64,000 nt of DNA from Gordonia jinghuaiqii (GTDB lineage Bacteria > Actinomycetota > Actinomycetes > Mycobacteriales > Mycobacteriaceae), in assembly GCF_014041935.1 (NCBI RefSeq), contig NZ_CP059491.1:1302001-1366000 (forward strand), written 5' to 3'. Position 1 is the first letter of the stretch; each line of letters opens with the position of its first letter. The notes beneath the pieces are model-generated. The model worked only from the letters and a program-made list of their open reading frames with translations, ran no database searches and was not told the DNA's origin. The position numbers were made by a program, and so were the translations under genes. Shown here piece by piece: positions 1-61,018 of the stretch.

Positions 1-401
1 ACGCCGAACTGCTCGTCGGGCTCGGCCTGTCCGGCGAGGACCTCCCCGCGCAGCTCGATCGCGAGGGCTGGCCGACGCTGCGGGCTCGTTTCGGCGAGAT
101 CTTCGCCTCCCGCACGCGGGCCGAGTGGACCGCGGTGTTCGCCGGACTTGATGCGTGTGTGTCCCCGGTGCTCTCGCCCTGGGAGGTCGCACAGGCCGAA
201 CATGTCACGGCGCGAGACGCATTCGTCCAGATCGACGGGATCGACCAGCCGGCACCGGCACCGCGCTTCTCCCGGACCCCCGCCGCGGTCCCGACCGGTC
301 CCCGGCTGCCGGGTGAGGACACCGACGCGGTGCTGGCCGAGTGGGCGCCGCGGGCGGCGGCCGGCGGAATGGTGAGTGAGGGAGAGGTGGCCGCCCCATG
401 A
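1..401 (+). CDS. Class III CoA-transferase / alpha-methylacyl-CoA racemase, C-terminal part
   Basis: The gene enters from the left edge; codons are read from base 3, with the stop at 399-401. The visible 132 residues contain the C-terminal signature of this family, including FASRTRAEWTAVFAGLDACV followed by SPVL, then a Pro/Ala-rich tail. Family members move CoA between acyl groups or epimerise 2-methylacyl-CoA, which fits the beta-oxidation genes that follow. The next gene's ATG overlaps the stop by 4 nt, so it is first in the visible part of the operon. Whether it is a transferase or a racemase cannot be told without the N-terminal catalytic Asp region. Confidence 0.8.
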   Translation, partial: AELLVGLGLSGEDLPAQLDREGWPTLRARFGEIFASRTRAEWTAVFAGLDACVSPVLSPWEVAQAEHVTARDAFVQIDGIDQPAPAPRFSRTPAAVPTGPRLPGEDTDAVLAEWAPRAAAGGMVSEGEVAAP

Positions 402-1600
402 CCGGTGCAGCAATGACCGAAACACAGACGACCACTGCCGCGGTCGATCTCGCCGTTCCCGACACCGTGGAGCAGGCGCGCGCAGACTTCCGCCGGTGGA
501 TGGCCGACCACCGCGTCGATCTCGAGCAGTTCCGGGAGACAGGCGGCGAGGTCACCGAGATCTTCGGACGGCTTCGTCAGTTGCAGCGAATGTTGTTCGA
601 CTCCGGGTGGATCCGCCTGGGATGGCCGCCGGAGATGGGTGGTCTCGGCGGAGCACCGATGCTGCGCAGCATCATCAGCGAGGAGCTCGCCGCGGCGGGG
701 TACCCGCCGCCGTTCTCCTTCGCGACGCAGGAGGTGCTCGGGCCCGCAGTTGCCGAATTCGCCCGGCCAGAACTCGCCGCGCATGTGCTGCCCCGGCTGC
801 TCAGCGGTCAGGAGACCTGGTGTCAGGGCTTCTCCGAGCCCGGTGCCGGGAGTGACCTGGCCTCTTTGCGACTCAAAGCCGTTGCCGTCGAAGGCGGTTG
901 GCGGGTCTCCGGCGAGAAGATCTGGACCAGCTGGGCACAGCTGGCCGACCGCTGTGTCCTCCTGGCCCGGACCGGTGACCTCGACTCGGGACATCGCGGC
1001 ATCTCGGCCTTCCTGCTCGACATGGACACCCCCGGCATCACGGTGAGCCTGTTGCGCAGCATGAACGGGGACGACGAGTTCTGCTCGTTGTTCTTCGACA
1101 ACGTGTTCATCCCCGAGGACCGACTGCTCGGCAAGCCCGACGGTGGGTGGGCGGTCACGATGCATGTCCTCGCCGGTGAGCGGGGTGCGGCCGCATGGCA
1201 ACGCCAGATCTGGTTGCGGTCGCGACTCGACGAGCTGGCCGCGGCGGGCGGCGTCGACGACACCGTCCTCGGTGAGAGTTTGGAGCTGCTCATGGCCCTG
1301 CGGGTGCTGTCACGTCGCACCGTGCGGGCACTGTCCGCCGGCGAGCCGGTCGGATCGACCACCTCACTGGACAAGCTCGCGATGTCCACGGCCGAGAAAT
1401 TCCTCTTCGACGCCGCGATGTCGGGTGCGTCCGACGAGATCGTCCTGGGGGGTTCGTTCGACAGCGGTTCGGGCCCCGGAGGGGGCGACGGCGCCTGGCG
1501 CAACGACTACCTCTACAGCCGCGCGTCGTCGATCTACGGCGGCGCGGCCGAGATCCAACGAAACATCATCGCCGAACGCCTGCTCGGCCTACCCCGCTGA
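398..1600 (+). CDS. Acyl-CoA dehydrogenase, FAD-binding (alpha-type) subunit
   Basis: 400-residue acyl-CoA dehydrogenase that would oxidise an acyl-CoA to the 2-enoyl-CoA using FAD. Seen: the substrate/FAD loop QGFSEPGAGSDLASL (about 143-157), a WTSW motif, and the C-terminal YGGAAEIQRNIIAERLLGLP typical of complete family members. ATG 398 is chosen because GGGAGAGG lies 9 nt upstream; an ATG at 413 has no ribosome site. It is directly followed by a shorter ACAD, the layout of actinobacterial heteromeric (alpha2beta2) ACADs used on bulky substrates such as sterol side chains. Pairing is inferred from order only. Confidence 0.9.
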   Translation: MTGAAMTETQTTTAAVDLAVPDTVEQARADFRRWMADHRVDLEQFRETGGEVTEIFGRLRQLQRMLFDSGWIRLGWPPEMGGLGGAPMLRSIISEELAAAGYPPPFSFATQEVLGPAVAEFARPELAAHVLPRLLSGQETWCQGFSEPGAGSDLASLRLKAVAVEGGWRVSGEKIWTSWAQLADRCVLLARTGDLDSGHRGISAFLLDMDTPGITVSLLRSMNGDDEFCSLFFDNVFIPEDRLLGKPDGGWAVTMHVLAGERGAAAWQRQIWLRSRLDELAAAGGVDDTVLGESLELLMALRVLSRRTVRALSAGEPVGSTTSLDKLAMSTAEKFLFDAAMSGASDEIVLGGSFDSGSGPGGGDGAWRNDYLYSRASSIYGGAAEIQRNIIAERLLGLPR

Positions 1601-1617
1601 GAGCGAAGGGATTGCGA

Positions 1618-2616
1618 ATGGATGCCGACGACGTCACCCAGGTGACCGAGAGCCTGCGCCGGGCTCTCCAGACAGATCCGGACAACGCACGGGACGCGGT
1701 CGGGGAGTTCGGTTGGACCGAACTCCTCGACGACGAACCCATGGTCGCGGTGAGGACACTGTTCCCGCTCTGGGGCGAGCTCCTCGCCCATGGGTCCATG
1801 CTCGACGAGGTGATGGCGCACGCGACCGGCATCGCCGATCTCGACCCGACCACCCGGGTGGCACTCCCCGCACTGGGCGGAAGTGATGTGCCCGGCACCC
1901 GCCGCGGCGATTCGGTGATCCTCGACGGACTCATCGCCCCCGGCTCCGGTCCGGTGCTGGTCGCGGCCACGTCGGAGAGCGGCGCGGTCGCCCTGGTCGT
2001 CGTGGCAGCACCACCGGCGCAAGCCGGCGACCCGCTGGACCCGACGATGGCCTTGCGGCGCATCCGCGGTGAGTTCACCGTGATCGCCGAACCGGTCGCC
2101 GACGCGCCGATCGCGTGGGCGTCGATGCTCGCGGCCGGACGGCGTGCGCTCGCACATGAACTCAACGGGGTCACCGGTGCGATGAAGGCGATGACGGTGG
2201 AGCACGTGCTCTCCCGCGAGCAGTTCGGCCAGGCACTCGGCTCGTTCCAGGCGGTCAAACACCAACTGGCCGACGTCCACCTGTGGCATCAGGTCGCCGA
2301 ACTGTCGGCCGCCGCCGCGTGGGAAGACGGTGGTGTGCGGCAGGACGGTGTGCGGCAGGACGGTGTGCGGCAGGACGGGGGGGCGCAGAGCGCAGCACTG
2401 GCGAAGGTGTCGGCGAACCGCGCCTCCGCCACCGCCCGCCGCGTCTGCCAACAGCTGCTCGGTGGGATGGGGTTCACCTGGGAGCACGACTTCCACCGCT
2501 ACCTGCGGCGCGCGCTCACCCTGGAGCCACTCCTGGGTGGCGTCGCCGACCTGCACGGCGAACTCGGGGCGGCGCTGCGCGACGGCCGGCTCGGACACCA
2601 ACTGATCTCGCTCTGA
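1618..2616 (+). CDS. Acyl-CoA dehydrogenase, short (beta-type) partner subunit
   Basis: 332-residue ACAD-fold protein. The C-terminal helical domain is clear (FQAVKHQLAD, then GGMGFTWEHDFHRYLRRA), while the N-terminal half is divergent and lacks the SEPxAGSD FAD loop, as expected for the partner subunit of a heteromeric ACAD. ATG 1618 is preceded by GCGAAGGG; a TTG at 1612 is less likely. Odd feature: three exact 15-bp repeats at 2332-2376 insert GVRQD three times into a loop between two C-terminal helices. It probably works with the preceding ACAD. Confidence 0.85.
   Translation: MDADDVTQVTESLRRALQTDPDNARDAVGEFGWTELLDDEPMVAVRTLFPLWGELLAHGSMLDEVMAHATGIADLDPTTRVALPALGGSDVPGTRRGDSVILDGLIAPGSGPVLVAATSESGAVALVVVAAPPAQAGDPLDPTMALRRIRGEFTVIAEPVADAPIAWASMLAAGRRALAHELNGVTGAMKAMTVEHVLSREQFGQALGSFQAVKHQLADVHLWHQVAELSAAAAWEDGGVRQDGVRQDGVRQDGGAQSAALAKVSANRASATARRVCQQLLGGMGFTWEHDFHRYLRRALTLEPLLGGVADLHGELGAALRDGRLGHQLISL
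2332..2376 (+). repeat. Three perfect 15-bp tandem repeats inside an ACAD gene
   Basis: GGTGTGCGGCAGGAC occurs three times head to tail (2332-2346, 2347-2361, 2362-2376), in frame as GVRQD x3, near residues 239-253 of the short ACAD. The unit length is a multiple of three, so gain or loss of units would keep the frame. Confidence 0.95.
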
Positions 2617-2679
2617 CCACACCCGGCCGCCCTGGGTCACAGCCCGGCGCATCCACCAACACATACTCGAGGAGACAAC

Positions 2680-3897
2680 ATGCGCGAAGCCTGGATCATC
2701 GATGGAGTCCGTACCCCGCGCGGTAAGGGCAAGCCCTCCGGGGCGCTGCACGGCGTGCATCCGCAGGAGCTCCTCGGTGGGCTTCTCACCGCGTTGAGCG
2801 AGCGCGGCCTCGACGCCGCCGACGTCGACGACGTCGTGATGGGCAACGGAGAACACGCCGGCGATCACGCCAACGACATCGCCCGTTCGGCCGCGCTCAC
2901 CGCGGGCTGGCCGGTGACCGTGCCGGGCCTGACCATCAACCGTTTCTGCGGCGGCGCCCAGCAGGCGGTCATGACCGCCGCCACCGGAGTGCTCTCCGGA
3001 TGGCAGGACCTGGTGGTCGCCGGTGGTGTGGAATCGATGTCGCGCCACAGCTACGGGCAGCCGCTCGACGCCAACAACCCGCGGCTCCGAGAGCGTTATC
3101 CGCTGGTGCCGCAGGGCATCTCGGCCGACCTCATCGCCACACTGGAAGGTTTCGACCGGGAGACGGTCGACGCCTTCGCGGTGCGCAGCCAGGAACTCGC
3201 CGCGCAGGCGATCAAGGAGGACCGCTTCGCCCGCAGCATCGTGCCGGTTCGCGACGCCGACGGCACCGTGCTCCTCGAGACCGACGAGCATGCCCGTCCC
3301 GGCACCACCGTGGAATCCCTGTCGGGCCTGCCCGCGTCCTTCGCGCGCTCGGGCAGCAAGCCCCGCGACGACCGCGGCCGCTCCTTCGACGACATGTGTC
3401 GCGAGACCTACCCGGAGGCGGCCGAGATCGCACATGTCCACCACGCCGGGAACTCCTCCGGCGTGGTCGACGGTGCCGCGGCGATCGTCGTCGCCTCGGA
3501 TGAGTACGCCAGGGCGCACGGACTGACGCCGCGGGCACGGCTGGTCAGCGCGGCGGTGCGGGGCGCCGAACCGGTCATCATGCTGACCGCGCCGGGACCG
3601 GCCGCCGAACTGTGCCTGCGCAAGGCCGGGATGACCGTGGCCGACATCGACCTCTGGGAGATCAACGAGGCCTTCGCGGCCGTGCCGCTGAAGGTGATCA
3701 AGGACTTGGCGATCGACCCCGACCGGGTCAACGTCAACGGTGGAGCCATCGCGCTGGGGCACCCGATCGGTGCCACCGGTGCGATGCTCTTCCAGACCGT
3801 CATCGACGAGCTCGAGCGCCGCGACCTCTCGACCGGGCTGGTGACGATGTGCACCGGCGGCGGGATGGCGACCGCCACCATCGTGGAACGGATCTGA
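2680..3897 (+). CDS. Acetyl-CoA acyltransferase (thiolase)
   Basis: 405-residue thiolase that would cleave 3-ketoacyl-CoA with CoA. Seen: the nucleophile region TINRFCGGAQQAV (Cys near residue 90), the motif NEAFA, the GGAIALGHPIGATGA loop with the catalytic His, and the C-terminal CTGGGMATA with the second catalytic Cys. Length is normal for degradative thiolases. ATG 2680 follows a CGAGGAGA ribosome site. A 63-bp gap separates it from the short ACAD, with no terminator, so it belongs to operon A. Confidence 0.93.
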   Translation: MREAWIIDGVRTPRGKGKPSGALHGVHPQELLGGLLTALSERGLDAADVDDVVMGNGEHAGDHANDIARSAALTAGWPVTVPGLTINRFCGGAQQAVMTAATGVLSGWQDLVVAGGVESMSRHSYGQPLDANNPRLRERYPLVPQGISADLIATLEGFDRETVDAFAVRSQELAAQAIKEDRFARSIVPVRDADGTVLLETDEHARPGTTVESLSGLPASFARSGSKPRDDRGRSFDDMCRETYPEAAEIAHVHHAGNSSGVVDGAAAIVVASDEYARAHGLTPRARLVSAAVRGAEPVIMLTAPGPAAELCLRKAGMTVADIDLWEINEAFAAVPLKVIKDLAIDPDRVNVNGGAIALGHPIGATGAMLFQTVIDELERRDLSTGLVTMCTGGGMATATIVERI

Positions 3898-3946
3898 CCA
3901 CCTGCGCTGTTCGCGCGGACCGATCGCCCACCCTGCAAGGAGAGAC

Positions 3947-4750
3947 ATGACCGACGCGGTAGAGACGTATCAATCGGTGGAAGTGCACCGGAACGGCCAC
4001 GTCGCCGAGTTGCGGCTGAACCGGCCCGACACCCTGAACGCCTTCGACGACACACTCGTCAACGAACTGCCGGCTGTGCTGATCGGCCTCGCCCGGGACA
4101 CCGGGGTTCGCGCGGTGGTGTGGACCTCGACCGGCAGGCATTTCTCCGCCGGTGGCGACATGGAGACGATCCTGGCCGGGCACGCCGATCTCAATGTGCT
4201 GCTGCAAGGGGTCGACGACGGTCGCCGCCTGTTCCGGGCCTTCGCCGACTTCCCCAAGCCGCTCGTGACGGCGGTGCAGGGAAGCAGCTTCGGGGTGGCG
4301 ACCAGTCTGATCTTCACCTCCGACGCGGTCGTGGTGTCCCCGGGCACCAAGCTGGCCGATCCGCACGTCCACATGGGGCTCGTCGCCGGCGACGGTGGTT
4401 GTGTCACCTGGCCGCTCAGCGCCGGTCTCGCCCGCGCCAAGCGCAAACTGCTGTGGGGAGAGGCGCTGACGGGACCCGAAGCGGTCGATCTGGGCCTGGC
4501 AACCGACCTCGTCGACTCCCCGGAAGATCTGCACGACAAAGCCTTCGAGCTCGCAACCCGGGTCGCGGCCATCCCGCCGATCGCCACGCAACTGACCAAG
4601 CGCGCCCTCAACCGGGTGCTGTCGGCCAACACCGACCAGGTCCTCGACACCGGCTTCTATCTCGAAGCCCTGTCCAATCGCAGCGCGGACGCGGTGGAGG
4701 CGGTCAACGCATTCAAGGAGAAAAGAGAAGGACGATGGACCGGAGCGTGA
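3947..4750 (+). CDS. Enoyl-CoA hydratase/isomerase family protein (crotonase fold)
   Basis: 267 residues with the crotonase oxyanion-hole segments HFSAGGDM and GSSFGVATSLIFTSD. The stretch that normally reads PExxLGxxPGxGG is ADPHVHMGLVAGDGG, so the usual first catalytic Glu is replaced by His. This ADPHVxxGLVAGDGG form recurs in a crotonase subgroup whose reaction need not be simple hydration. AAGGAG sits 5 nt before ATG 3947. It ends just ahead of the acyl-CoA synthetase gene. Precise reaction unknown. Confidence 0.85.
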   Translation: MTDAVETYQSVEVHRNGHVAELRLNRPDTLNAFDDTLVNELPAVLIGLARDTGVRAVVWTSTGRHFSAGGDMETILAGHADLNVLLQGVDDGRRLFRAFADFPKPLVTAVQGSSFGVATSLIFTSDAVVVSPGTKLADPHVHMGLVAGDGGCVTWPLSAGLARAKRKLLWGEALTGPEAVDLGLATDLVDSPEDLHDKAFELATRVAAIPPIATQLTKRALNRVLSANTDQVLDTGFYLEALSNRSADAVEAVNAFKEKREGRWTGA

Positions 4751-4752
4751 GC

Positions 4753-6351: not shown

Positions 6352-6354
6352 GTC

Positions 6355-7479
6355 ATGTTCCTCAGCCCCGCAGACGAATACTTCACCCACCAGACCGCGC
6401 TCACCCACGCGATGGTCGCCACGAGCGACCCGTCGTGGCGCGAACGCTACTGGGTGAGTTTCCAGGACACCACGACCGGCGACACGGTTCTCACCCTCGG
6501 CCTCGGCCGGTATCCGAACCAAGACGTGATGGAAGCGTTCGCATGCTTCTCCTCCGGCGGCGTCCAGACCAACGTCCGGCTGTCGCGGACGTTGCTGCCG
6601 CAGAGCCATCAGATGACCGTCGGTGACTTCGCCTGCGAGATCGTCGAACCCATGCGCACCCTGCGATTCACCCTCGGCGACAACGACTCCGGACTCGCTT
6701 TCGACGTCACCTTCGAGGCGACGTTCGAGCCCATCCTGGAGGGACGCTTCTTCCAGATCAGCCGTGCGCGAACCACTTACGATGCGATCCGCTACGTCCA
6801 GCACGGACGCGCGCGCGGATGGATCCGTACCCCGTCGGGCGAATCGATCGAGGTGACACCGGAACGCTGGTGGTGCGAACGCGACCACTCGTGGGGTACC
6901 CGACCGCTCCCGCGCGCCGAGGGACAGCCGCCGGGTGAACGGCCCGAGTGGAAGATGCTGCTGTTCGCACCGCTGCAACTGCCCGACTTCGCGGTACACC
7001 TCTACCTGCAGGAGTCCGAACCGGGCCGTCCCGTCTACCTGTCGGCGGGTATCGCCGCCGGGCTCGACAGCGACGCCGAGGTCCCGGTGATCGTCGGCGT
7101 CGACCATGACCTCGAATGGGAGAAGGACGCGGCTGCACCGACTCTCGTCGGCGGCCGGGTCACCCTGATGCTGCACGGCGGCGAACGGATCGACCTCGAA
7201 CTGTCCGCGCGTCCGGCCCGGGCGCACCTGCGTGGCGGTGGCTATGAGGGGTGGAACGGATGGAAACAGGGCAGTTGGCGCGGTGAACTGACCGCCGAGC
7301 ACGACCAGTGGGATCTGCGTGACCGGTCGAATTTCTACCGGTACGCCAAAGCCGGTTCGGATCATCTGGTCGAGGTGCGGCACAACGACTCCGTCGGCTA
7401 CGGGATCGTCGAGTACATGGTGCTGCCCGGGTACGGCCGCTACTCCGAGGCCCTGCCGCCCACGCGCCCCAAGGCCTGA
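6355..7479 (+). CDS. CrtC/AttH-like (lipocalin-fold, DUF7064/7065-type) protein
   Basis: 374 residues, no signal peptide or membrane segment. It resembles actinobacterial proteins grouped with hydroxyneurosporene synthase (CrtC)/AttH-like tandem lipocalin folds. The diagnostic stretch is WWCERDHSWGTRPL; the paralogue at 15854 has WWAVRDHSWGVRPG at the same place. In CrtC itself this fold hydrates an isolated double bond, so a hydratase or lipid-binding role on a terpenoid or fatty substrate is conceivable, but no function is established. It sits tightly between the acyl-CoA synthetase and the kinase genes. Confidence 0.7.
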   Translation: MFLSPADEYFTHQTALTHAMVATSDPSWRERYWVSFQDTTTGDTVLTLGLGRYPNQDVMEAFACFSSGGVQTNVRLSRTLLPQSHQMTVGDFACEIVEPMRTLRFTLGDNDSGLAFDVTFEATFEPILEGRFFQISRARTTYDAIRYVQHGRARGWIRTPSGESIEVTPERWWCERDHSWGTRPLPRAEGQPPGERPEWKMLLFAPLQLPDFAVHLYLQESEPGRPVYLSAGIAAGLDSDAEVPVIVGVDHDLEWEKDAAAPTLVGGRVTLMLHGGERIDLELSARPARAHLRGGGYEGWNGWKQGSWRGELTAEHDQWDLRDRSNFYRYAKAGSDHLVEVRHNDSVGYGIVEYMVLPGYGRYSEALPPTRPKA

Positions 7480-7480
7480 G

Positions 7481-8491: not shown

Positions 8492-8874
8492 GACCGCAAC
8501 CATCGGAGATCATCTCGGGGATCCGTGCGATTCTCGATGACACCATCGCGCCCGAGCTGACCAGCGATCACGCCCGATCGCGATTGATCGAGATCCGTGC
8601 TGTGCTGGCTCAGATCGACTGGGATAATGCAGGCTTCGAACTCGTCGCCCGTGCCGATTCCCTGGCTGCGGGGCTCGCCGACGCCCGACACTGGTTGCCG
8701 GGTGAGCTGCCGTCACCGCCGCCTGCCGCCGATTACGGGTCCTATCAGGGCTATCACGAGGAACTCGCCGCGCTGGCGACGAGGACTCTGGAGAACCTGC
8801 GCTCGGTACTGACCGAGGCCCCCTCCGACCTGGCGGCCTCGGCTGTCTATCGCCGGTTGCTGACCCTCGTCTGA
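8488..8874 (+). CDS. Small helical partner of the kinase (DUF6285/LvaB-like candidate)
   Basis: 128 residues starting at GTG 8488, which overlaps the kinase stop (GTGA). The protein is mostly alpha-helical by composition (for example IIS GIRAILDDTIAPEL, RLIEIRAVLAQI, AALATRTLENLRSVL), with no signal peptide or membrane helix. Its size, position and coupling to an APH kinase match LvaB, the small protein needed for LvaA kinase activity in levulinate catabolism. I did not find a diagnostic motif, so the family name is tentative. It is the last gene of operon A; an inverted repeat follows. Confidence 0.65.
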   Translation: MRPQPSEIISGIRAILDDTIAPELTSDHARSRLIEIRAVLAQIDWDNAGFELVARADSLAAGLADARHWLPGELPSPPPAADYGSYQGYHEELAALATRTLENLRSVLTEAPSDLAASAVYRRLLTLV

Positions 8875-8953: not shown

Positions 8954-9038
8954 TTCCCTATGCCCGTCTTCCCGGCGGAACCCACCGCCTGATCGTCGGC
9001 GTTGATCATCGCGACCGGAATATTCTATGATTAGATTG

Positions 9039-9052: not shown

Positions 9053-9059
9053 TTATGGA

Positions 9060-9105
9060 ATGGTGATGGCATGGCTCACAGCATGGTGATGGAATGACTC
9101 CCAGC
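9060..9105 (+). repeat. Imperfect 23-bp tandem duplication over the start codon of operon B
   Basis: Positions 9060-9082 and 9083-9105 match at 20 of 23 bases. The second copy carries the ATG at 9094; the equivalent ATG in the first copy (9071) is out of frame because 23 is not a multiple of three. Confidence 0.8.
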
Positions 9106-10338
9106 GTCGACGAATTCGCCCACGAAGCCCGCGAGTTCCTGGGCTCGCTGACCCGTGATCGTGGCGACGTGACCGCGACCAAGCCGGTCAAGTCGCGGTA
9201 CGCACTGTTCTCCGGATCGACCGACGATGAGCTCGCCGCCGCCCTCGACTACCAGCGCGCGATCTTCGACGCCGGTTTCGGGTGGATCGCCGGCCCCGTC
9301 GAGGATGGTGGAGCCGGCCTGCCGCCGCAGTACGAGCGGGCTTTCGCCAAGGTCGAGCGCGGCTTTCCGATCCCGTCGAAGGGGCCCCTGTCGGTCAGTC
9401 TCGGCATGGTGGCGCCGACGCTGGCGCAGTTCGGTTCACCCGAGGCGAAGTCGAAGTGGCTCAAGGGTTTGCGTCGCGCCGATGTGGTCGGCTGCCAGTT
9501 GTTCAGCGAACCGGCCGCCGGCTCGGACCTGGCGGCGGTGCGGACCAAGGCGACACGCGAGAACGCCGACGGCGACTGGACACTGAACGGACAGAAGGTG
9601 TGGACGTCCGGTGCGCACTATTCGCAGGTCGGCATCGCCCTGACCCGCACCTCGGACGGACCGCGGCACAAGAACCTGACGGCCTTCGCCGTGGACATGA
9701 CCGCCCCCGGCGTCGAGGTCAGGCCGCTGCGCCAGATCACCGGGGCCGCCGACTTCAACGAGGTGTTCCTCACCGACGTCGTCGTCCCGGACGCGCATCG
9801 GCTCGGTGAGGTCGGTGCGGGGTGGCAGGTCGCGATCGCGATGCTGATGCACGAGCGCAACGCGATCGGCGGTTCCTCCAGCGGGGGAAGTGGATTGTTC
9901 CGCATGGACGACCTCGCCGCCTGGATCTCCGATCTGGGCCGGGGCGACGATCCGGTGGTCGTCGAGGCCTTCGCCAAGGTCTACTCGGGTGTCACCTCGG
10001 CGAAGGCCATGCGAGCGCGGGCCGATGCGAACCTCAAGGCCAACGGTGTACCCGGACCCGAGATGTCGCTGGGCAAGCTCGCGCTCACCGCGAACCTCCA
10101 GGCGCTGAGCGACCTGGTGAGCGTGGTCCTGGGGCCGCGGCTGATCGGCGACACCGGTGCCCCGCAGTCGTTCGCCTGGTCCGAACTCGTCCTGAGCGTG
10201 CCGGGAATGCGTATCGGCGGCGGCACCGACGAGATCCACCGCAACACCGTCGCCGAACGATTCCTGGGGCTCCCCAAGGACAAGCAGAAGTACACGCAGA
10301 CACCAATGACACAGACAAGTAGTGACGCAGACAAGTGA
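9094..10338 (+). CDS. Acyl-CoA dehydrogenase, first gene of operon B
   Basis: 414 residues, full-length ACAD. Seen: CQLFSEPAAGSDLAAVRTKA (FAD/substrate loop), VWTSGAHYSQ, and the C-terminal IGGGTDEIHRNTVAERFLGL. A polar 20-residue tail follows the fold. No strong ribosome site precedes ATG 9094 (GGTGAT at 9085), and the start lies in a duplicated 23-bp segment. It likely pairs with the shorter ACAD at 12492 as a heteromeric enzyme. The gene lies about 40 bp behind an operator-like site shared with the tetR locus at 55.5 kb. Confidence 0.9.
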   Translation: MTPSVDEFAHEAREFLGSLTRDRGDVTATKPVKSRYALFSGSTDDELAAALDYQRAIFDAGFGWIAGPVEDGGAGLPPQYERAFAKVERGFPIPSKGPLSVSLGMVAPTLAQFGSPEAKSKWLKGLRRADVVGCQLFSEPAAGSDLAAVRTKATRENADGDWTLNGQKVWTSGAHYSQVGIALTRTSDGPRHKNLTAFAVDMTAPGVEVRPLRQITGAADFNEVFLTDVVVPDAHRLGEVGAGWQVAIAMLMHERNAIGGSSSGGSGLFRMDDLAAWISDLGRGDDPVVVEAFAKVYSGVTSAKAMRARADANLKANGVPGPEMSLGKLALTANLQALSDLVSVVLGPRLIGDTGAPQSFAWSELVLSVPGMRIGGGTDEIHRNTVAERFLGLPKDKQKYTQTPMTQTSSDADK

Positions 10339-10346
10339 GGAAAACC

Positions 10347-11267
10347 ATGGGACATCTCGACGGTAAGACGATCATCGTGACCGGTGCCGCGCGCGGCATC
10401 GGACGTGAGCACGCATTGCTGTTCGCCGCGGAGGGCGCCAGTGTGGTCGTCAACGACCTGGGCGGCGCCCAGGACGGCAGCGGCGCACAGGCCGGCCCGG
10501 CCCAGGACGTGGTCGAGGAGATCAAGGCCGCCGGCGGGCAGGCCGTGGCCAACGGCGACGACGTGTCCGACTCGGCCGGCGCGGCCCGCATCGTGGCGAC
10601 GGCCATCGACACCTTCGGTGGTGTCGACGGCCTGGTCAACAACGCCGGAATCCTGCGCGACCGAGTGCTGGTCAACATCGACGACGACGACTGGGATCTG
10701 GTGCTGCGGGTCAACCTGCGTGGCACCTTCGTGATGACCCGTGAGGTCGCGCGCTACTGGCGCGAGCAGAGCAAGGCCGGCAAGGACACCTCCGGTTCGG
10801 TGGTGAACACGAGCAGCGAGTCGGGTGTCTTCGGCAACCCGGGGCAGACCAACTACTCGGCAGCCAAGTCGGCTGTCGCCACCCTCACGCAGGTCGCCTC
10901 GAAGGAACTGCAGCGCTACGGAGTTCGCGTCAACGCGATCCTGCCGCAGGCCCGCACCCGGCTCACCGAGAGCGCCTTCGGCGATGCGCTGGCAGGCAAG
11001 GAAGGCGAGTTCGACCGTTTCGACCCGGCGAACGTCTCGCCGTTCGTCGGCTATCTGCTGGCTCCGTCCTGCCCGTTGACGGGGGAGGTCTTCCTCGTCG
11101 GCGGTTCGCGCGTGCAGCGCATCGCGCCGTGGACCAAGGATCCCAACTGGAAGCTGATGTCGGAAGGACGCTGGACGCTCGACGCCCTCGACAAGGCCGT
11201 CGCCGAGGCCGGCATCCCCAGCGGCGGAAACAGCTGGACCGCGAACCCGGGAAAGGGCGCCAAATGA
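10347..11267 (+). CDS. SDR-family 3-hydroxyacyl-CoA dehydrogenase
   Basis: 306-residue short-chain dehydrogenase. Seen: the cofactor motif TGAARGIG near residue 13, NNAG, catalytic Ser in NTSSESG and YSAAK with catalytic Tyr/Lys. The insert NDLGGAQDGSG after the second strand resembles peroxisomal multifunctional enzyme 2 and mycobacterial (3R)-hydroxyacyl-CoA dehydrogenases, consistent with the MaoC hydratase next door giving (R)-hydroxy intermediates. ATG 10347 is favoured over GTG 10335 because GAGG lies 6 nt upstream. Its stop overlaps the MaoC ATG by 4 nt. Confidence 0.88.
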   Translation: MGHLDGKTIIVTGAARGIGREHALLFAAEGASVVVNDLGGAQDGSGAQAGPAQDVVEEIKAAGGQAVANGDDVSDSAGAARIVATAIDTFGGVDGLVNNAGILRDRVLVNIDDDDWDLVLRVNLRGTFVMTREVARYWREQSKAGKDTSGSVVNTSSESGVFGNPGQTNYSAAKSAVATLTQVASKELQRYGVRVNAILPQARTRLTESAFGDALAGKEGEFDRFDPANVSPFVGYLLAPSCPLTGEVFLVGGSRVQRIAPWTKDPNWKLMSEGRWTLDALDKAVAEAGIPSGGNSWTANPGKGAK

Positions 11268-12481
11268 CGACCGCGGAGTCGGTGGACAAGACCACCGAGG
11301 CGAAGATGCCCGAAGCCGTCATCACCGACGAGATGGTCGAGTCGATGAAGGCCCGCGCCGGGGTCAACCTGCGCATCGACCATTCGGTCAACAACGAAGA
11401 GGCGACTCGCATCGCGGTGACCAAGTTCACCGGCGGCATCGGCGATGTCAACACGCTGTGGACCGACGCCGAGCAGGCGCAACGCTCGGATTACGGTGCC
11501 CCGGTTGCCCCGCCGTCGTTCGTGATCGGTTGTTTCTCCGGAATCCAGTTCGGCTGGCCGGGACTCGGCGCTTTTCACAACGCGACACAGGCGCACTTCT
11601 ACAAGCCGGTGTACTGGGGTGACACCATCACCGCGACGTGTCGGTACGACGGTTTCACCGGGCCGCGTCCCAGCAAGTTCGCCGGCCAGATGGTGACCGA
11701 TCATTTCGTGAACAGCTACCGCAACCAGCACGACGAGCTGGTCGCCGAGATCAACTGGCAGGTGGTCAATTTCGAGCGCGGTTCGGCGAAGTCGCGGTCG
11801 AAGGAGGCGGGGAAGGACTCGTCGAAGCCCGAGCTGGTGCTGCCGCATCCGTGGCAGGAGGACGAGATCGTCGCCATCGAGCGTCAGGTCCTCGCCGAGA
11901 AGCCGCGCGGCACCGCCCCCCGCTTCTGGGAGGATGTCACCGTCGGCGAGACGATGCAGACCCTCACCAAGGGTCCGATCGGTCTGACCGACGAGGTCGC
12001 CTTCATCGCCGGCGGCGGCACCCCGATCCCGCGTCTGAAGGCGCACGCCGCGGCTCTTGCCGACTACCAGGCGCATCCGGCGTGGTCGTTCCGCGACCCG
12101 GTGATGGGTTCGAGTGAACCGATCTACGCCGTGCACTACAACAAGGCGGCGGCCAACGCGATGGGCGTGGCGTTCCAGTACGACGTCGGGTTCCAGCGGC
12201 AGTGCTGGCAGACCCAGCTCCTGACCAACTGGATCGGCGACAACGGCTGGGTGGCCGACTGCAGCTCGGAGTACCGCGGCTTCGTCTACCTGTCCGACGT
12301 CATCACCCTCGGCGGTGAGGTCACCGGCAAGGAGATCACCTCCGACGGCGAACACGTCGTGCATCTGACCACCTTCGCGACCAACCAGCGCGGGGCGAAT
12401 GTGATGCCCGGAACCGCGACCGTTGCCCTCCCGTCTGCCGAAGGTGTGTCTCCCGTGGCCCGCCGGGCACGGAAAGCGTAA
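11264..12481 (+). CDS. MaoC-family double-hotdog enoyl-CoA hydratase
   Basis: 405 residues made of two hotdog-like halves: an N-terminal FAS1-type dehydratase domain (about 20-170, with DYGAPVAPPSFVIG) and a C-terminal MaoC-type domain (about 210-390, with RFWEDVTVGETM). It would hydrate trans-2-enoyl-CoA to the 3-hydroxyacyl-CoA that the upstream SDR oxidises. ATG 11264 overlaps the SDR stop. Two-domain MaoC proteins of this length accept bulky acyl-CoAs in steroid and terpenoid catabolism, but the substrate here is unknown. A short charged linker (KSRSKEAGKDSSK) joins the halves. Confidence 0.85.
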   Translation: MTTAESVDKTTEAKMPEAVITDEMVESMKARAGVNLRIDHSVNNEEATRIAVTKFTGGIGDVNTLWTDAEQAQRSDYGAPVAPPSFVIGCFSGIQFGWPGLGAFHNATQAHFYKPVYWGDTITATCRYDGFTGPRPSKFAGQMVTDHFVNSYRNQHDELVAEINWQVVNFERGSAKSRSKEAGKDSSKPELVLPHPWQEDEIVAIERQVLAEKPRGTAPRFWEDVTVGETMQTLTKGPIGLTDEVAFIAGGGTPIPRLKAHAAALADYQAHPAWSFRDPVMGSSEPIYAVHYNKAAANAMGVAFQYDVGFQRQCWQTQLLTNWIGDNGWVADCSSEYRGFVYLSDVITLGGEVTGKEITSDGEHVVHLTTFATNQRGANVMPGTATVALPSAEGVSPVARRARKA

Positions 12482-12491
12482 GGAAAAGTAC

Positions 12492-13625
12492 ATGGCACTC
12501 GACGCGCAGGAGCGTTCGGCGCTGGCCGAAGCCGTCCGCGATGCCTCGGCATCGGGTCCGCGGGACCACCTCGACGATCACGGGAAACCCCGCCGTGACG
12601 AACGGTTGTGGAAGCTCCTGGTCGATCAGATGGGTCTCGGTGGCCTGGTCGTCGCCGAGGGGTCGGAGTCCGACGAGGACTCCGCGGGCATCGCCGAGAT
12701 GGCGCTCGTCTGTGAGGAACTCGCCCGCAACCTGGCGGTGGTGCCGGCCCTCTCGACTCTCGGGATGGCCGGTTCGCTCCTGCGCGTCGTGGCCACTGGC
12801 GAGGCGGAGGCCCTGCTGTCGCGGGCGGCGGCCAATGAGGTGGCGATCGCCGTCGGCTGGCCGGATGCGGGCTCCACCCGGGTCGTCGCCGCGCTCACCG
12901 GTTCGGGCCGCACCGACCCGGGCAGCACGATCACCGTCGACGGTCAGGTGGACTTCGTCCTCGACGGGTCGGATACCGACGTCCTGCTCGTGCCGGTGCG
13001 GGTCGGCGACACCGAGGTCGTCGTGGCCGTGGACACCGGTGCCCAGGGCCTGGCCGTCACGGCGATGACCGGTCTGGATCTGACGCGGGGGCTGGCATCG
13101 TTCGCATTCACCGGATGCCCGGCCACCGTCGTCGGACCCGCGTCGAATCTGGCGTCGGCTCTGGACATCTCGCTGATCCTGATCGCCGCCGAACAGATCG
13201 GTGTCGCCCAGCACTGCCACGACGCGGCGGTCGCCTGGGCCAAGGAACGCATCCAGTTCGATCGTCCGATCGGACAGTTCCAGGCCATCAAGCATCAGCT
13301 CGTCGACCTGCTGATGAAGCTCGAACTCGGCCGGTCGGCACTCGATGTCGCGGTCGCTGCGGCCGATGCCCATCTGGAGAGTCCGGACGAGGAGACCGCC
13401 CGCGCCCTGTCGGTCGCGGCGAGCACCGCCAAAGCCGCCTGCGGTGACGCCGCGGTCATCATCGCCGACCAGTCGTTGCACATCCTCGGCGGTATCGGGT
13501 TCACCTGGGAACATGACGCCCACCTGTATCTGCGGCGCGCCAAGGTACTCGAGGTCTATCTCGGGACCCCGGGCGCCCATCGCGCACGTTTCGCCACCCG
13601 ACTGCTGGAGGATGCAAGCCGATGA
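12492..13625 (+). CDS. Acyl-CoA dehydrogenase, partner-type subunit
   Basis: 377 residues. The C-terminal helical domain is clear: RIQFDRPIGQFQAIKHQLVD and GGIGFTWEHDAHLYLRRAK. The N-terminal half lacks the SEPxAGSD loop and is enriched in short Ala/Val strands, the pattern of non-FAD-contacting partner subunits. ATG 12492 follows AAGGAAAAGTAC. The closest relative in the window by motif is the short ACAD at 1618. The next gene's ATG overlaps its stop by 4 nt (ATGA), so translation is probably coupled. Confidence 0.87.
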   Translation: MALDAQERSALAEAVRDASASGPRDHLDDHGKPRRDERLWKLLVDQMGLGGLVVAEGSESDEDSAGIAEMALVCEELARNLAVVPALSTLGMAGSLLRVVATGEAEALLSRAAANEVAIAVGWPDAGSTRVVAALTGSGRTDPGSTITVDGQVDFVLDGSDTDVLLVPVRVGDTEVVVAVDTGAQGLAVTAMTGLDLTRGLASFAFTGCPATVVGPASNLASALDISLILIAAEQIGVAQHCHDAAVAWAKERIQFDRPIGQFQAIKHQLVDLLMKLELGRSALDVAVAAADAHLESPDEETARALSVAASTAKAACGDAAVIIADQSLHILGGIGFTWEHDAHLYLRRAKVLEVYLGTPGAHRARFATRLLEDASR

Positions 13626-14425
13626 CCGCGGCACAGACAACTTCGTCGACCACCTCGGAGCCGGAAGTGCTTCTCGAGGTGAGTGATTCGGGCGTCGCCA
13701 CCCTGACGCTGAACCGGCCGAAGCGTAAGAACGGCCTGAACAAGGCGATGGTCGATCAGGCCATCGCCGCACTGGAGACCATCTGGGGCGACGACCGGTG
13801 CCGGGTGGTGGTACTCACCGGAGCCGGAACGTCGTTCTGTTCGGGAATGGACTTGTCCGAGCGGATCCTGCCCGACGAGATGACGTTCATGCGACGGGTG
13901 GGGCATCTGTGCACGGTCATCCACGACCTCCCGTTGCCGGTGATCTCGAAGGTGCGTGGGGGTGCGGTCGGCTACGGCGCCAATCTCGCGCTGTGCGCGG
14001 ACCTGGTGGTGGCGAGTGACACCGCGGTCTTCGGTGAGATCTTCGCCGAGCGCGGACTGTCCATCGACGGTGGCGGCTCCTGGCTCGTGCCGCGGCTGGT
14101 GGGCCTCGGGCGCGCCAAGGAGATCATGTTTCTCGCCGCCCGCGTGAGTGGTCCCGAGGCGGCGGAGATGTGCCTGGTCAACCGGTGCGTCCCCGATGCG
14201 GATCTCGACGGATTCGTCGACGACTGGTCCGCGCGGCTCGCCGACGGTCCGCGACGCGCGTTGTCGGTCATCAAACAGCAACTGAACGCGTCCTTCGAGC
14301 GTTCGTTCGCCGACGCCATCGAATCCGAGGCGGTGGGACAGGCGCTCTCGTTCCGGTCCAAGGAATCGCGCGAAGGGGCCAAGGCCTTCTTCGAGAAGCG
14401 CGTTCCCGACTTCCGGTCCTGCTGA
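13622..14425 (+). CDS. Enoyl-CoA hydratase/isomerase (crotonase fold)
   Basis: 267 residues. Seen: CSGMDLSE and GGAVGYGANLALCADLV (oxyanion hole), and FGEIFAERGLSIDGGGSWLVP, where an acidic residue sits in the SIDGGGSW context that is common in isomerase-like members such as PaaG. So a double-bond isomerase is as likely as a hydratase. It overlaps the upstream ACAD by 4 nt and precedes the fused kinase gene by 16 bp with a GAAGGAG ribosome site between. Confidence 0.88.
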   Translation: MTAAQTTSSTTSEPEVLLEVSDSGVATLTLNRPKRKNGLNKAMVDQAIAALETIWGDDRCRVVVLTGAGTSFCSGMDLSERILPDEMTFMRRVGHLCTVIHDLPLPVISKVRGGAVGYGANLALCADLVVASDTAVFGEIFAERGLSIDGGGSWLVPRLVGLGRAKEIMFLAARVSGPEAAEMCLVNRCVPDADLDGFVDDWSARLADGPRRALSVIKQQLNASFERSFADAIESEAVGQALSFRSKESREGAKAFFEKRVPDFRSC

Positions 14426-14441
14426 GAAGGAGCGATCGACG

Positions 14442-15857
14442 ATGTCCATCAGTGAGCGTGCCGTTGACCCCGACTGCACCGCAGACGAATTGGTCACCGT
14501 ACGTGCTGTGCGCGAGGCCATCCACGCCGAGATCGCGGCCGGGGCCGGCGCCGCGGAGACGATTCTCGCCTCCGCCGTCCCGTTGTTCCATCGGGCGCTG
14601 GAAGAGGACCTTCGGCCCGAACGCCGGGTGGCCCATCGCACCCGTGTGGCGGAAGCGTTGTCGGCGTTCGGCTTCGACCCCGACGCCGGTGCCGATCCGT
14701 ACTGCGGAGTCGTCGAGCGGGTCGCGTCGATCGCGACCGATCCCGCATCCTCCGCGGTGAGGATGCTGCTGGAATCGCTGGTCGCCGCCGATCTCCCCGG
14801 CGCCGGACGCACCATCGAAGCCGATGGGCCCGCCGCCGGTGAGTCCGAGGGCAATTCGCTCGGGGAGGAGCTGACCTCGGCGATCCGGCCCGACGCAGTG
14901 CGAACCTATCTCGCCGCACGTCTCGGACGAGACGTGCGTGTGCGGTCGGTGAAGCAGCTCGCCGGCGGCCTGTCCAAGAAGACCACCCTGCTCACGATCG
15001 ACGGCGATGCCGCGGCGCCGGAAGAGATCGTGTTGCGGCAGGTCGCGCCGGGACGCGACGCCCACACACTCATCGACGAGTTCGCCGTCGTCGGCCACGT
15101 CTTCGGCCATGGCGTCGCGGTACCCGAGCCGCTGTGGCTGGAGCCCCAGGACAATGCCCTGGGCGGACCGTTCTTCGCGACCCGCCGAGCCCGCGGGGCC
15201 AATGTGGGCGACGTCTTCGGGCCGGACCCGGGCACCACGCCGAAGGCCGCGGAAGCCCTGGCGCGGGAGCTGGGCAACCTGCATGCGCTAGCGATCGACG
15301 GCGCGGTGCCGACACCGGTGCCCCCGATGGCCACTCGCGGCGAGATCCTGGACGCCATCGACGAGCAACGTCGACTGGTGCGCGGCGTGGAGCGCGCCAT
15401 CGGTATCGATGCCGCGCCGCTTGGCTCGCTGTTGTTCGAATGGCTGGCGGCAAATGCGCCGACGGGGGTCGAGACACCGGTGCTCCTGCACGGGGACCCG
15501 GGATTCCACAACATCCTCCTCGACGGTGAGGAACTCACCGCGATGCTGGACTGGGAGCGCGCCCGAATCGGCGATCCGGCACAGGATCTCGCGTACGTCC
15601 GGCCCGCGGTCGAGAACATCTTCGAGTGGGAGGACTTCCTGCGAATCTACTGTGAGGCCGGTGGCCGACGCCCGACCGACCAGCAGCTGGCCTACTACGC
15701 CGTCTGGCACGATGCCTGGCGATTCGTCGGCTCCTACCGTGGTCTCGGGCGCCTGGTGAGCGAACCACGAACGCTCCTCGACGCGCTCCTGGGGTTGGAC
15801 TATGCGCCCCGCTACCTGCGGGGCGGACTGGAGAAGGCATTCGAGGTGGCCCTGTGA
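14442..15857 (+). CDS. APH-family kinase with N-terminal helical domain (fused LvaAB-like candidate)
   Basis: 471 residues, about 135 longer than the kinase at 7481. Residues 1-125 form an extra helical region (VRAVREAIHAEIAAG, RTRVAEALSAFGF, SSAVRMLLESLVAADL). Residues 145-471 are the APH kinase: QLAGGLSKKTTLL, catalytic loop LLHGDPGFHNILLDGE, metal site AMLDWERARIGDPAQDLAYV. In operon A the kinase and a small helical protein are separate but translationally coupled; here they look fused. Direct sequence similarity between the two helical parts is weak by eye. The likely substrate is a hydroxyacyl-CoA made by this operon. Confidence 0.82.
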   Translation: MSISERAVDPDCTADELVTVRAVREAIHAEIAAGAGAAETILASAVPLFHRALEEDLRPERRVAHRTRVAEALSAFGFDPDAGADPYCGVVERVASIATDPASSAVRMLLESLVAADLPGAGRTIEADGPAAGESEGNSLGEELTSAIRPDAVRTYLAARLGRDVRVRSVKQLAGGLSKKTTLLTIDGDAAAPEEIVLRQVAPGRDAHTLIDEFAVVGHVFGHGVAVPEPLWLEPQDNALGGPFFATRRARGANVGDVFGPDPGTTPKAAEALARELGNLHALAIDGAVPTPVPPMATRGEILDAIDEQRRLVRGVERAIGIDAAPLGSLLFEWLAANAPTGVETPVLLHGDPGFHNILLDGEELTAMLDWERARIGDPAQDLAYVRPAVENIFEWEDFLRIYCEAGGRRPTDQQLAYYAVWHDAWRFVGSYRGLGRLVSEPRTLLDALLGLDYAPRYLRGGLEKAFEVAL

Positions 15858-16963
15858 ACACCCGCGCACTGCACCCGCTCGACGAGACGCTGATGCACCA
15901 GGTTCCCTGGCCGTTCGGCTTCGCCGGCACCTCCGATCCCCGGTTCTACGATCGGTACTGGTTCGCCGGGGTCGACCCCGCCGGCGGCGCCGGATTCATC
16001 TCCGGCATGGCGCTGTACAAGAACATGGGGGTCTGCGACGGATACGGTGCGGTTCAACGCGCCGGGCGGCAACACAATTCACGATGGTCGAGGCCGTTGG
16101 TCACCGAGACCGCGCAGGCCACCGTCGGGGACCTCGGGGTGGAGATCATCGAGCCCTACCGCAAGGTGCGTGTCTGTTGGTCAGGCGAATCCTCGCCACT
16201 TGCAGCCGAACTCGTGTTCACCGCGGCATTCGGTCCCTACACCGAGGAGCACTACCTCGACGCCAGTACCGGCCGGATCGGCCAGGAGATCACCCGGTAC
16301 AACCAGATCGGGCGCTGGGACGGATGGCTCGCGGTCGATGGTGACCGGCTGACCGTCGACGACTGGTGGGCGGTGCGCGATCATTCGTGGGGTGTCCGCC
16401 CGGGCGTGGGGGGCATCGACCGGTCGGTGGCCGACCCGGCAGCACGCGCATCGGCGCCGATGATGCACACGGTGTTGTATGCGGCCACCGCGGACAGCTG
16501 TATCTGCGTGTCCCGGCGCGAGAATCAACGCGGACAGGTCACCTATCTCGACGGCGAGGTCATCGGTGCCGACGGTCGGCGTTCCACCGTGGTGATCGCC
16601 GATGTGACGCCGGAGTTCGTGCCCGGAACCCGGACATACCGATCGGTGCGGATGGTCGTCGAATCCGAGGCGGGCACCCGCCACGAGATCGTCGCGACAC
16701 CGCTGCTCGACCCGTGGGCCTACGCGGGGACCGGATACGACGGCGGTTACGCCGACGGGCGCGGCCTCGGAGTGCCGCGCGGCGAGCTCGTCGAACACGA
16801 TGTCTACGATCTCGTCGCACCCGAGTCCGTGCTGCTCGACGGTGCGCCGACCCCGAGCGGTCACCGCGAACAGTTCGCGCGGATCGTCGTCGACGGTGTC
16901 GAGACCACCGGGTACTGCACCGTCATGACGCGCGGTTCGTTGCCGCACCGCGGGGTGGGCTGA
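15854..16963 (+). CDS. CrtC/AttH-like protein, paralogue of the 6355 gene
   Basis: 369 residues; starts at GTG 15854 overlapping the kinase stop by 4 nt. It shares with the 6355 protein the N-terminal LHPLDETLMHQ / FLSPADEYFTHQ region, a DPxxxxRYW segment, and the WWAVRDHSWGVRP core. No signal peptide or transmembrane helix. Both copies are adjacent to an APH kinase but in swapped order, so the association is conserved while gene order is not. Function not established; see the paralogue for possibilities. Confidence 0.7.
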   Translation: MNTRALHPLDETLMHQVPWPFGFAGTSDPRFYDRYWFAGVDPAGGAGFISGMALYKNMGVCDGYGAVQRAGRQHNSRWSRPLVTETAQATVGDLGVEIIEPYRKVRVCWSGESSPLAAELVFTAAFGPYTEEHYLDASTGRIGQEITRYNQIGRWDGWLAVDGDRLTVDDWWAVRDHSWGVRPGVGGIDRSVADPAARASAPMMHTVLYAATADSCICVSRRENQRGQVTYLDGEVIGADGRRSTVVIADVTPEFVPGTRTYRSVRMVVESEAGTRHEIVATPLLDPWAYAGTGYDGGYADGRGLGVPRGELVEHDVYDLVAPESVLLDGAPTPSGHREQFARIVVDGVETTGYCTVMTRGSLPHRGVG

Positions 16964-61013: not shown

Positions 61014-61018
61014 CGGGT

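What the first reader, a model, noticed from the sequence alone, without database searches (positions are those of the whole stretch)
398..16963. Two-operon acyl-CoA pathway built around kinase-assisted (LvaAB-like) chemistry
Both operons combine two ACADs, a hydratase-fold enzyme, an APH kinase with a helical partner domain and a CrtC/AttH-like protein; the thiolase and acyl-CoA synthetase are in A, and the MaoC and SDR in B. In levulinate catabolism of Pseudomonas putida, LvaA (APH) with LvaB phosphorylates a 4-hydroxyacyl-CoA and an ACAD-fold enzyme removes the phosphate; human ACAD10/11 do similar chemistry. The set suggests a catabolic route for a hydroxylated branched or terpenoid acid that has not been described to my knowledge.
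Basis: partly seen in the sequence, partly recalled or inferred. Interest (0 to 1): 0.72.

Follow-up and report, generated by a model that had tools for sequence, protein, structure and literature searches.

The report
Paired kinase-lyase acyl-CoA degradation operons
Two neighbouring gene clusters in a Gordonia-like bacterium each carry a kinase and a partner enzyme that probably remove a stubborn hydroxyl group by first tagging it with phosphate, so that the cell can go on to break down a steroid- or terpene-like acid.

Summary
The gene content is as described; operon A begins about 2.4 kb upstream of the window. The proposed LvaAB/ACAD10-11 chemistry is not supported here. The 'CrtC/AttH-like' proteins belong to NCBIfam 'Rv3169 family' (368 and 293 bits; cut-off 150), and their only significant PDB sequence relative is 25-phosphosteroid lyase (E 8e-33, 9e-27). 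An APH kinase adjoins each. Kinase-lyase adjacency recurs at 60 of 79 named loci (about 2 expected) and 40 of 60 sampled family loci. The operon ACADs lack the HCMR motif (0 of 4) of ACAD10/11; a genuine ACAD11-type pair with HCMR lies at 60971-63361. Best reading: each operon removes a hindered, probably tertiary, hydroxyl by ATP-dependent phosphorylation and lyase-catalysed phosphate elimination, feeding a steroid- or terpenoid-like CoA pathway. Lyases A and B are only 27-29% identical to 25-PSL, so the substrate is unknown. Two Rhodococcus megaplasmids carry operon A and five operon B genes without kinase B and lyase B, and a Thermocrispum locus has operon A ACADs and a lyase without a detected kinase. 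Coupling of these modules is therefore loose. New variant of a known kind.

The parts
1..401 (+). 3' end of CaiB/BaiF-type CoA-transferase family III gene (starts about 744 bases upstream of the window); operon A continues upstream with SCP2-type thiolase and OB-fold/ChsH2-type protein
   Evidence: PF02515 276 bits; PF22691/PF00108; PF12172+PF01796; coordinates
398..1600 (+). operon A ACAD, alpha-type (three ACAD domains recognised)
   Evidence: PF02770/02771/00441; top PDB matches 6wy8_B/6wy9_A Tcur3483 E 7.5e-33, 4x28_A E 1.5e-32; no HCMR
1618..2616 (+). operon A ACAD, beta-type partner (only the C-terminal domain recognised)
   Evidence: PF00441; NF050027 IpdE2 65 bits, below cut-off 450; no HCMR; not searched against the PDB
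2680..3897 (+). thiolase
   Evidence: NF006090 535 bits, above cut-off 514
3947..4750 (+). enoyl-CoA hydratase/isomerase (crotonase fold)
   Evidence: PF00378 129 bits
4753..6351 (+). acyl-CoA synthetase; nearest named model steroid-24-oyl-CoA synthetase CasG, below its cut-off
   Evidence: NF052580 418 bits, cut-off 750
6355..7479 (+). phospho-alcohol lyase A (inferred): Rv3169 family, relative of 25-phosphosteroid lyase; RDHSWGTR with Asp177
   Evidence: NF053593 368 bits, cut-off 150; PDB 9fzn E 7.8e-33; motif
7481..8491 (+). APH-fold kinase A, HGDFRPAN/LDWE motifs intact
   Evidence: PF01636 85.5 bits (longer frame); motifs
8488..8874 (+). small helical partner of kinase A, 4-base overlap with the kinase gene
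   Evidence: 32 proteins found, the window's own included; predicted four helices, pLDDT 88.8; no Pfam match at E<=1
9094..10338 (+). operon B ACAD, alpha-type (34% identical to 398-1600 over 353 aa)
   Evidence: PF02770/00441/02771; no HCMR; not searched against the PDB
10347..11267 (+). SDR oxidoreductase (start 10335 GTG or 10347 ATG)
   Evidence: NF005861 377 bits, cut-off 373
11264..12481 (+). MaoC/FAS1-DH-type hydratase
   Evidence: PF13452, PF01575
12492..13625 (+). operon B ACAD, beta-type partner
   Evidence: PF00441; 6wy8_A Tcur3481 third and 4x28_D fifth among PDB matches; IpdE2 129 bits, below cut-off; no HCMR
13622..14425 (+). enoyl-CoA hydratase/isomerase (crotonase fold)
   Evidence: PF00378 182 bits
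14442..15857 (+). kinase B: N-terminal helical domain (about 18-117) fused to APH kinase (144-471), HGDPGFHN/LDWE intact
15854..16963 (+). phospho-alcohol lyase B (inferred): Rv3169 family, RDHSWGVR with Asp176; 4-base overlap with kinase B
   Evidence: NF053593 293 bits; PDB 9fzn E 9e-27

Best explanation
Each operon carries a two-enzyme ATP-dependent dehydration module. The APH-fold kinase phosphorylates a hindered (probably tertiary) hydroxyl of a bulky hydrophobic substrate. The adjacent Rv3169-family lyase, working like 25-phosphosteroid lyase, eliminates phosphate to leave a C=C bond, with the conserved Asp of RDxSWGxR as a likely catalytic residue. The product enters beta-oxidation by the operon's CoA ligase, paired alpha/beta-type ACADs, crotonase- and MaoC-type hydratases, SDR and thiolases. 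Shown here: gene content and order, family membership, intact kinase and lyase motifs, recurrent kinase-lyase linkage, and absence of the ACAD10/11 HCMR motif. Inferred: the reaction itself, that A and B act on two hydroxyls of one catabolic route, and the substrate class (steroid- or terpenoid-like acid or alcohol). Unknown: whether the kinases act before or after CoA activation.
For: Both AttH-like proteins exceed the NF053593 cut-off, and 25-phosphosteroid lyase is their only significant PDB sequence relative. RDxSWGxR is invariant in 24 of 24 aligned rows and found in 82 of 85; the aligned stretch of PDB 9g4c has N where 9fzn has this D. Kinase B's top structural matches include 25-HSK with its 25-OH substrate and its 25-phospho product, and Rv3168. 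A kinase lies within 1.3 kb of 60 of 79 named lyase loci, 53 on the same strand, against about 2 expected from 9 kinases in 886 kb of outer flank (limit chosen after seeing the gaps); 40 of 60 in a family sample, all same-strand. Coupling distances: 1-base gap in A, 4-base overlap in B. 25-HSK phosphorylates a tertiary steroid alcohol, and a separate lyase activity follows (PMC8449060, passages and Discussion). No HCMR in the operon ACADs.
Against: No biochemistry. Lyases A and B are only 27-29% identical to 25-PSL, so function is inferred across a distant family. 16 of 79 named loci (5 of them cut within 600 bases by a contig end) have no detected kinase and 3 have one farther off; 20 of 60 family loci lack an adjacent one. 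Kinase A's best PDB relatives are 3dxp and 9o56; 9fsg is far weaker (E 1.7e-5). Two Rhodococcus plasmids have operon B without kinase B and lyase B, and L008 (Thermocrispum municipale) has operon A genes and a lyase without a detected kinase in 10 kb. The other window genes are absent beside the pair in most of the 79 loci. The APH fold also fits macrolide, homoserine and aminoglycoside kinases.
Confidence: 0.72

Rival explanations
1. LvaA/ACAD10-11-type route: the kinase phosphorylates a 4-hydroxyacyl-CoA and one of the operon ACADs removes the phosphate.
For: APH kinases beside ACADs and a CoA ligase; ACAD11 is among both kinases' PDB matches.
Against: HCMR motif absent from 4 of 4 operon ACADs but present in the 60971-62269 ACAD. 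Two operon ACADs were searched: 398-1600 is led by 6wy8/6wy9/4x28, 12492-13625 by 8i4p/7w0j with 6wy8_A third; ACAD11 is in neither list of 60 rows (of 96 and 63). The position of ACAD11 R176, modelled to contact CoA, is V in kinase A and D in kinase B but R in the 62288 kinase (weak alignment). A lyase-family gene is present in each operon.
Confidence: 0.1
2. Each kinase-lyase pair is a cargo module for a different substrate from the ACAD operon beside it (for example free terpene alcohols), placed there by recombination.
For: Pair B occurs in two Nocardia loci without detected window ACADs within 10 kb, and operon B occurs without pair B on two Rhodococcus plasmids.
Against: Pair A stays with ligase and small partner in the window, on Rhodococcus plasmids and in one unnamed family genome, whose kinase frame shows one internal stop; tight gene overlaps.
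Confidence: 0.25
3. The kinases inactivate antibiotics or other small molecules, and the AttH-like proteins are lipid-binding or unrelated.
For: Macrolide and aminoglycoside kinase relatives by fold and weak NCBIfam matches.
Against: The resistance-kinase models listed are far below cut-off (for example 47 bits against 205); catabolic operon context; recurrent pairing with the 25-PSL family.
Confidence: 0.03

Closest known systems
25-hydroxysteroid kinase + 25-phosphosteroid lyase of anaerobic cholesterol degradation (kinase characterised from Sterolibacterium denitrificans, PMC8449060; PDB 9fsg/9ft5 and 9fzn/9g2i/9g4c, source organism not shown by the calls)
   Same: APH-fold kinase plus a separate lyase of the same protein family; intact kinase motifs and RDxSWGxR; ATP-dependent dehydration of a tertiary alcohol as the proposed reaction
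   Different: Here the genes are adjacent (in S. denitrificans no lyase candidate lay near the kinase, PMC8449060) and embedded in CoA-dependent operons of a Gordonia-like bacterium; only 27-29% lyase identity; substrate unknown
Rv3168-Rv3169 operon of Mycobacterium tuberculosis (repressed by Rv3167c, PMC5340868 passages)
   Same: Rv3168 (APH fold, 3ats) next to Rv3169, the name-giver of the lyase family
   Different: Its reaction was not stated in the passages read; in this genome the copies closest to 25-PSL are other genes (2761642, 4570386)
LvaA/LvaC and ACAD10/11 4-hydroxyacyl-CoA pathway (PMC12440821, PMC11342911, passages)
   Same: kinase-assisted removal of a hydroxyl before beta-oxidation
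   Different: phosphate removed by an HCMR-bearing ACAD; operons A and B lack it; the window's 60971-63361 pair has it
Heteromeric ACADs of PDB 6wy8 (Tcur3483/Tcur3481) and 4x28 (recalled as ChsE4-ChsE5 of steroid side-chain degradation)
   Same: two ACAD genes per operon, one with all three domains recognised, one reduced partner
   Different: distant; complex formation and steroid substrate not tested

Membership tests
25-HSK/25-PSL ATP-dependent dehydration pair | AttH-like protein belongs to the lyase family over the curated cut-off | tested here: met
   NF053593 368 and 293 bits vs 150; 9fzn E 8e-33 and 9e-27
25-HSK/25-PSL ATP-dependent dehydration pair | conserved lyase motif incl. the Asp that reads Asn in PDB 9g4c | tested here: met
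   RDHSWGTR (A) and RDHSWGVR (B)
25-HSK/25-PSL ATP-dependent dehydration pair | kinase catalytic Asp/Asn and metal-binding motifs intact | tested here: met
   HGDFRPAN/LDWE and HGDPGFHN/LDWE
25-phosphosteroid lyase proper | orthology to 25-PSL | tested here: not met
   27% (A) and 29% (B) identity; two other copies of this genome (38%, 35%) group with 25-PSL at 100/99; B lies in another group; A with its Rhodococcus counterpart joins the 25-PSL group as a sister at 96/82, a join flagged as long-branch and unsure
25-HSK/25-PSL ATP-dependent dehydration pair | phosphorylation then phosphate elimination of a tertiary alcohol | not testable with these tools
   needs enzyme assay
LvaA-LvaC / ACAD10-11 module | ACAD with HCMR motif | tested here: not met
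   0 of 4 operon ACADs; present in 60971-62269 (motif from PMC12440821 passages)
LvaA-LvaC / ACAD10-11 module | ACAD closest to ACAD11/LvaC | tested here: not met
   2 of 4 operon ACADs searched (398-1600, 12492-13625); ACAD11 not among the 60 rows shown of 96 and 63; control 60971-62269 hits ACAD11 at 7.9e-116, second to 4hr3
LvaA-LvaC / ACAD10-11 module | kinase Arg residues modelled to contact CoA (R86, R176 of ACAD11) | tested here: inconclusive
   R176 position: R in the 62288 kinase, V in A, D in B; R86 could not be placed (numbering off by two); weak alignment
LvaB (recalled as a DUF6285 protein) | DUF6285 helical partner | tested here: inconclusive
   no Pfam match at E<=1 for 8488-8874 or the kinase B N-terminus; DUF6285 shares an open frame with another kinase at G000:C1:4926468-4927757
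Steroid-type heteromeric ACAD | alpha and beta genes matching the two chains of a solved heteromer | tested here: inconclusive
   A's alpha led by 6wy8_B/4x28_A; B's beta has 6wy8_A third and 4x28_D fifth; the other two were not searched but are homologous to these (34% and 28% identity); complex not testable

The most novel reading that the evidence does not exclude
APH kinase + AttH-like (Rv3169-family) lyase pairs are a general, widespread bacterial device for ATP-driven dehydration of hindered alcohols, far beyond anaerobic sterol degradation. In this Gordonia-like genome two divergent pairs, A and B, serve successive dehydrations in one undescribed CoA-dependent catabolic island shared in part with Rhodococcus megaplasmids, and a linked PEP-utilising protein with a phosphohistidine-type domain may be a further phosphoryl-transfer step.
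Probability: 0.4. Interest if true: 0.75.

Novelty: new variant of a known kind. Interest (0 to 1): 0.6.

Why it matters
If true, it gives a testable reaction to a large protein family annotated as 'Rv3169 family', DUF7065 or hypothetical, including the Rv3168-Rv3169 operon. It would show that phosphorylation-elimination of hindered hydroxyls, so far worked out for anaerobic sterol breakdown, is also wired into CoA-dependent operons of actinobacteria and sits on large Rhodococcus plasmids. It also separates two ways of removing a phosphorylated hydroxyl, ACAD-type and lyase-type, both encoded within 64 kb of one genome.
Full report
WHAT IS THERE. The window is G000:C1:1302001-1366000 of a 5.18 Mb single-contig genome. 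The nearest named proteins are from Gordonia (lyase B 87% to Gordonia sp. GONU; kinase B 73% to G. amicalis). Operon A: ACAD, ACAD, thiolase, crotonase-fold enzyme, AMP-forming acyl-CoA synthetase, AttH-like protein, APH kinase, small helical protein. Operon B: ACAD, SDR, MaoC-type hydratase, ACAD, crotonase-fold enzyme, helical-domain/APH kinase fusion, AttH-like protein. Operon A starts before the window with an OB-fold/ChsH2-type protein, an SCP2-type thiolase and a CaiB-type gene that ends at 401, overlapping the first ACAD. In both operons kinase and AttH-like gene are directly adjacent: 1-base gap in A, 4-base overlap in B.

THE KEY IDENTIFICATION. The AttH-like proteins fall in NCBIfam NF053593, 'Rv3169 family' (368 and 293 bits; cut-off 150). 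Against PDB chain sequences the only significant matches are 9fzn/9g2i and 9g4c, named 25-phosphosteroid lyase: E 7.8e-33 for A and 9e-27 for B; the next match for A is at E 0.068. In an alignment of A, B, 25-PSL and 21 homologues, R-D-x-S-W-G-x-R is invariant in 24 of 24 rows, with further invariant His, Asp, Asn, Gln and Arg residues. The motif is found in 82 of 85 rows of a wider set. In the aligned stretches 9g4c has Asn where 9fzn has the Asp of this motif, which I take to be an inactivating variant made to study catalysis (inference).

LINKAGE TEST. With a limit of 1.3 kb, chosen after seeing the gaps, a kinase lies next to the lyase at 60 of 79 (53 same strand, 7 opposite), 3 have one farther off, and 16 have none; 5 of those 16 are cut within 600 bases of the lyase by a contig end. 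Beyond 3 kb the same loci hold 9 kinases in 886 kb, so about 2 of 79 would be expected. In a less selected sample, 36 of 61 genomes of the family, the window's own included, carry 65 family members at E <= 1e-30. Of the 61 places outside the window's genome I fetched 60: 40 have a same-strand kinase within 1.3 kb, none an opposite-strand one, and 20 have none in that range, one of these with a kinase at 1.7 kb. In the window's own genome 3 of 4 members above cut-off have an adjacent APH gene (A, B and 2761642; not 4570386).

WHY NOT LVAAB/ACAD10-11. In ACAD10/11 the ACAD domain removes the phosphate and the HCMR motif is essential (PMC12440821, passages). None of the four operon ACADs has it; the ACAD at 60971-62269 does. 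The latter is ACAD11-like (8v3u, E 7.9e-116, second to 4hr3, a putative acyl-CoA dehydrogenase) and is followed by a kinase at 62288-63361 that matches 9o56 (4.5e-78) and ACAD11 (2e-45). I searched two operon ACADs against the PDB. For 398-1600 the top rows are 6wy8_B, 6wy9_A and 4x28_A; for 12492-13625 they are 8i4p and 7w0j, with 6wy8_A third and 4x28_D fifth. So A's alpha and B's beta resemble the two different chains of the same heteromers; the other two ACADs were not searched but are homologous to these (34% and 28%). That 4x28 is the cholesterol side-chain enzyme ChsE4-ChsE5 is recalled. The ACAD11 arginine R176, modelled to contact CoA, is Arg in the 62288 kinase, Val in kinase A and Asp in kinase B; R86 could not be placed because numbering differed by two, and the alignment is weak. 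The nearest named ligase model is steroid-24-oyl-CoA synthetase (418 bits, cut-off 750) and the nearest beta-ACAD model is IpdE2 (65 and 129 bits, cut-off 450): hints of steroid-like substrates, not membership.

NOT 25-PSL ITSELF. In a tree of 85 rows 25-PSL groups with the two other copies of this genome (100/99; 38% and 35% identity to 25-PSL, against 27% for A and 29% for B). Lyase A sits with its Rhodococcus counterpart and joins that 25-PSL group as a sister (96/82), a join that the program flags as a meeting of long branches. Lyase B sits elsewhere, with Nocardia, Streptomyces, Rhodococcus, Pseudonocardia and Thermocrispum proteins. So the operons work like 25-HSK/25-PSL, lyase A possibly nearer to it than B, but neither is an evident orthologue, and the substrate is open.

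DISTRIBUTION AND MODULARITY. Kinase A at E <= 1e-60 occurs in 3 of 201 family genomes (own included), kinase B in 1 of 201 (own); none of 14 other same-genus genomes had either, with at most 8-10 candidates per genome scored. The lyase A-kinase A-small protein stretch is on 4 Rhodococcus plasmid records (72-73% identity over 91-94% of it). I looked at two of these. On Rhodococcus sp. ZPP plasmid pRZP2 operon A is conserved, with a block holding a P450 and other oxidoreductases between the crotonase and the ligase, and operon B's first five genes follow, without kinase B and lyase B; R. opacus pRho-VOC14-L gives 95-100% identical matches to these genes and none to kinase B or lyase B. No plasmid record has a kinase B match covering 80% of it, and every record's best place is under 60% identity. 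Conversely Nocardia alni and N. veterana carry kinase B-lyase B without detected window ACAD homologues in 10 kb. A Thermocrispum municipale locus (L008) has the OB-fold, SCP2 thiolase, CaiB, both operon A ACADs and thiolase next to a B-like lyase, but no detected kinase. So kinase-lyase pairs and ACAD operons combine loosely, which tells against a fixed pathway built around the kinases.

PROPOSED MECHANISM. (1) A hydroxylated polycyclic or branched substrate (oxygenases lie nearby: a Rieske protein about 11.5 kb upstream of the window, P450s on the Rhodococcus plasmid) carries a tertiary or otherwise hindered hydroxyl that ordinary hydratases do not remove. (2) Kinase A or B transfers the ATP gamma-phosphate to it; the small protein or fused helical domain may shape the site (inference). 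(3) The lyase eliminates phosphate to give an alkene. (4) Ligase, ACAD pairs, hydratases, SDR and thiolases carry out beta-oxidation. The upstream SCP2-type protein keeps thiolase-like cysteines, so thiolysis is likelier than retro-aldol cleavage. Two pairs suggest two hydroxyls or two stages. Steps 1-4 are inferred from families; nothing was assayed.

VERDICT. This is a new variant of a known kind, with wide linkage support and an unknown substrate. The checking of this report corrected statements (tree position of lyase A, ACAD matches, the L008 locus) and required no change of the odds.

Noticed in passing
window 60971-63361: ACAD (HCMR motif, ACAD11-like E 7.9e-116) followed by an APH kinase (9o56, ACAD11-like): a genuine ACAD10-11/LvaC-type pair, 44 kb from the operons.
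   Followed up: yes
L001:5531-7270 (8.5 to 6.7 kb upstream of the window): 579-aa PEP-utilising protein resembling the C-terminal half of PEP synthase and rifamycin phosphotransferase families (NF004878 166 bits, NF041857 133 bits, far below cut-offs; PDB 5fbs E 4e-26); near full-length homologues of 54% identity or more lie in 4 of 79 lyase loci (L003, L004, L005, L007) and on the Rhodococcus plasmid L086.
   Followed up: partly
G000:C1:4926468-4927757: APH kinase and DUF6285 domain (82.6 bits, cut-off 28.1) in one open frame; a second, sub-threshold case near 4456825-4458048.
   Followed up: no
G000:C1:2760773-2762676 and 4570386-4571444: Two more Rv3169-family members, 38% and 35% identical to 25-PSL; the first has an APH kinase directly upstream.
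   Followed up: partly
window 2335-2379: Three near-identical 15-base tandem units (VRQDG x3) inside the operon A beta-ACAD gene.
   Followed up: no
window 23290-24207, - strand: Rubber-oxygenase/MpaB-type catalytic domain protein (PF09995, 172 bits).
   Followed up: no
window 17001-17984: F420-dependent luciferase-like oxidoreductase (TIGR03560 281 bits, cut-off 231) just downstream of operon B; membership of the operon not tested.
   Followed up: no
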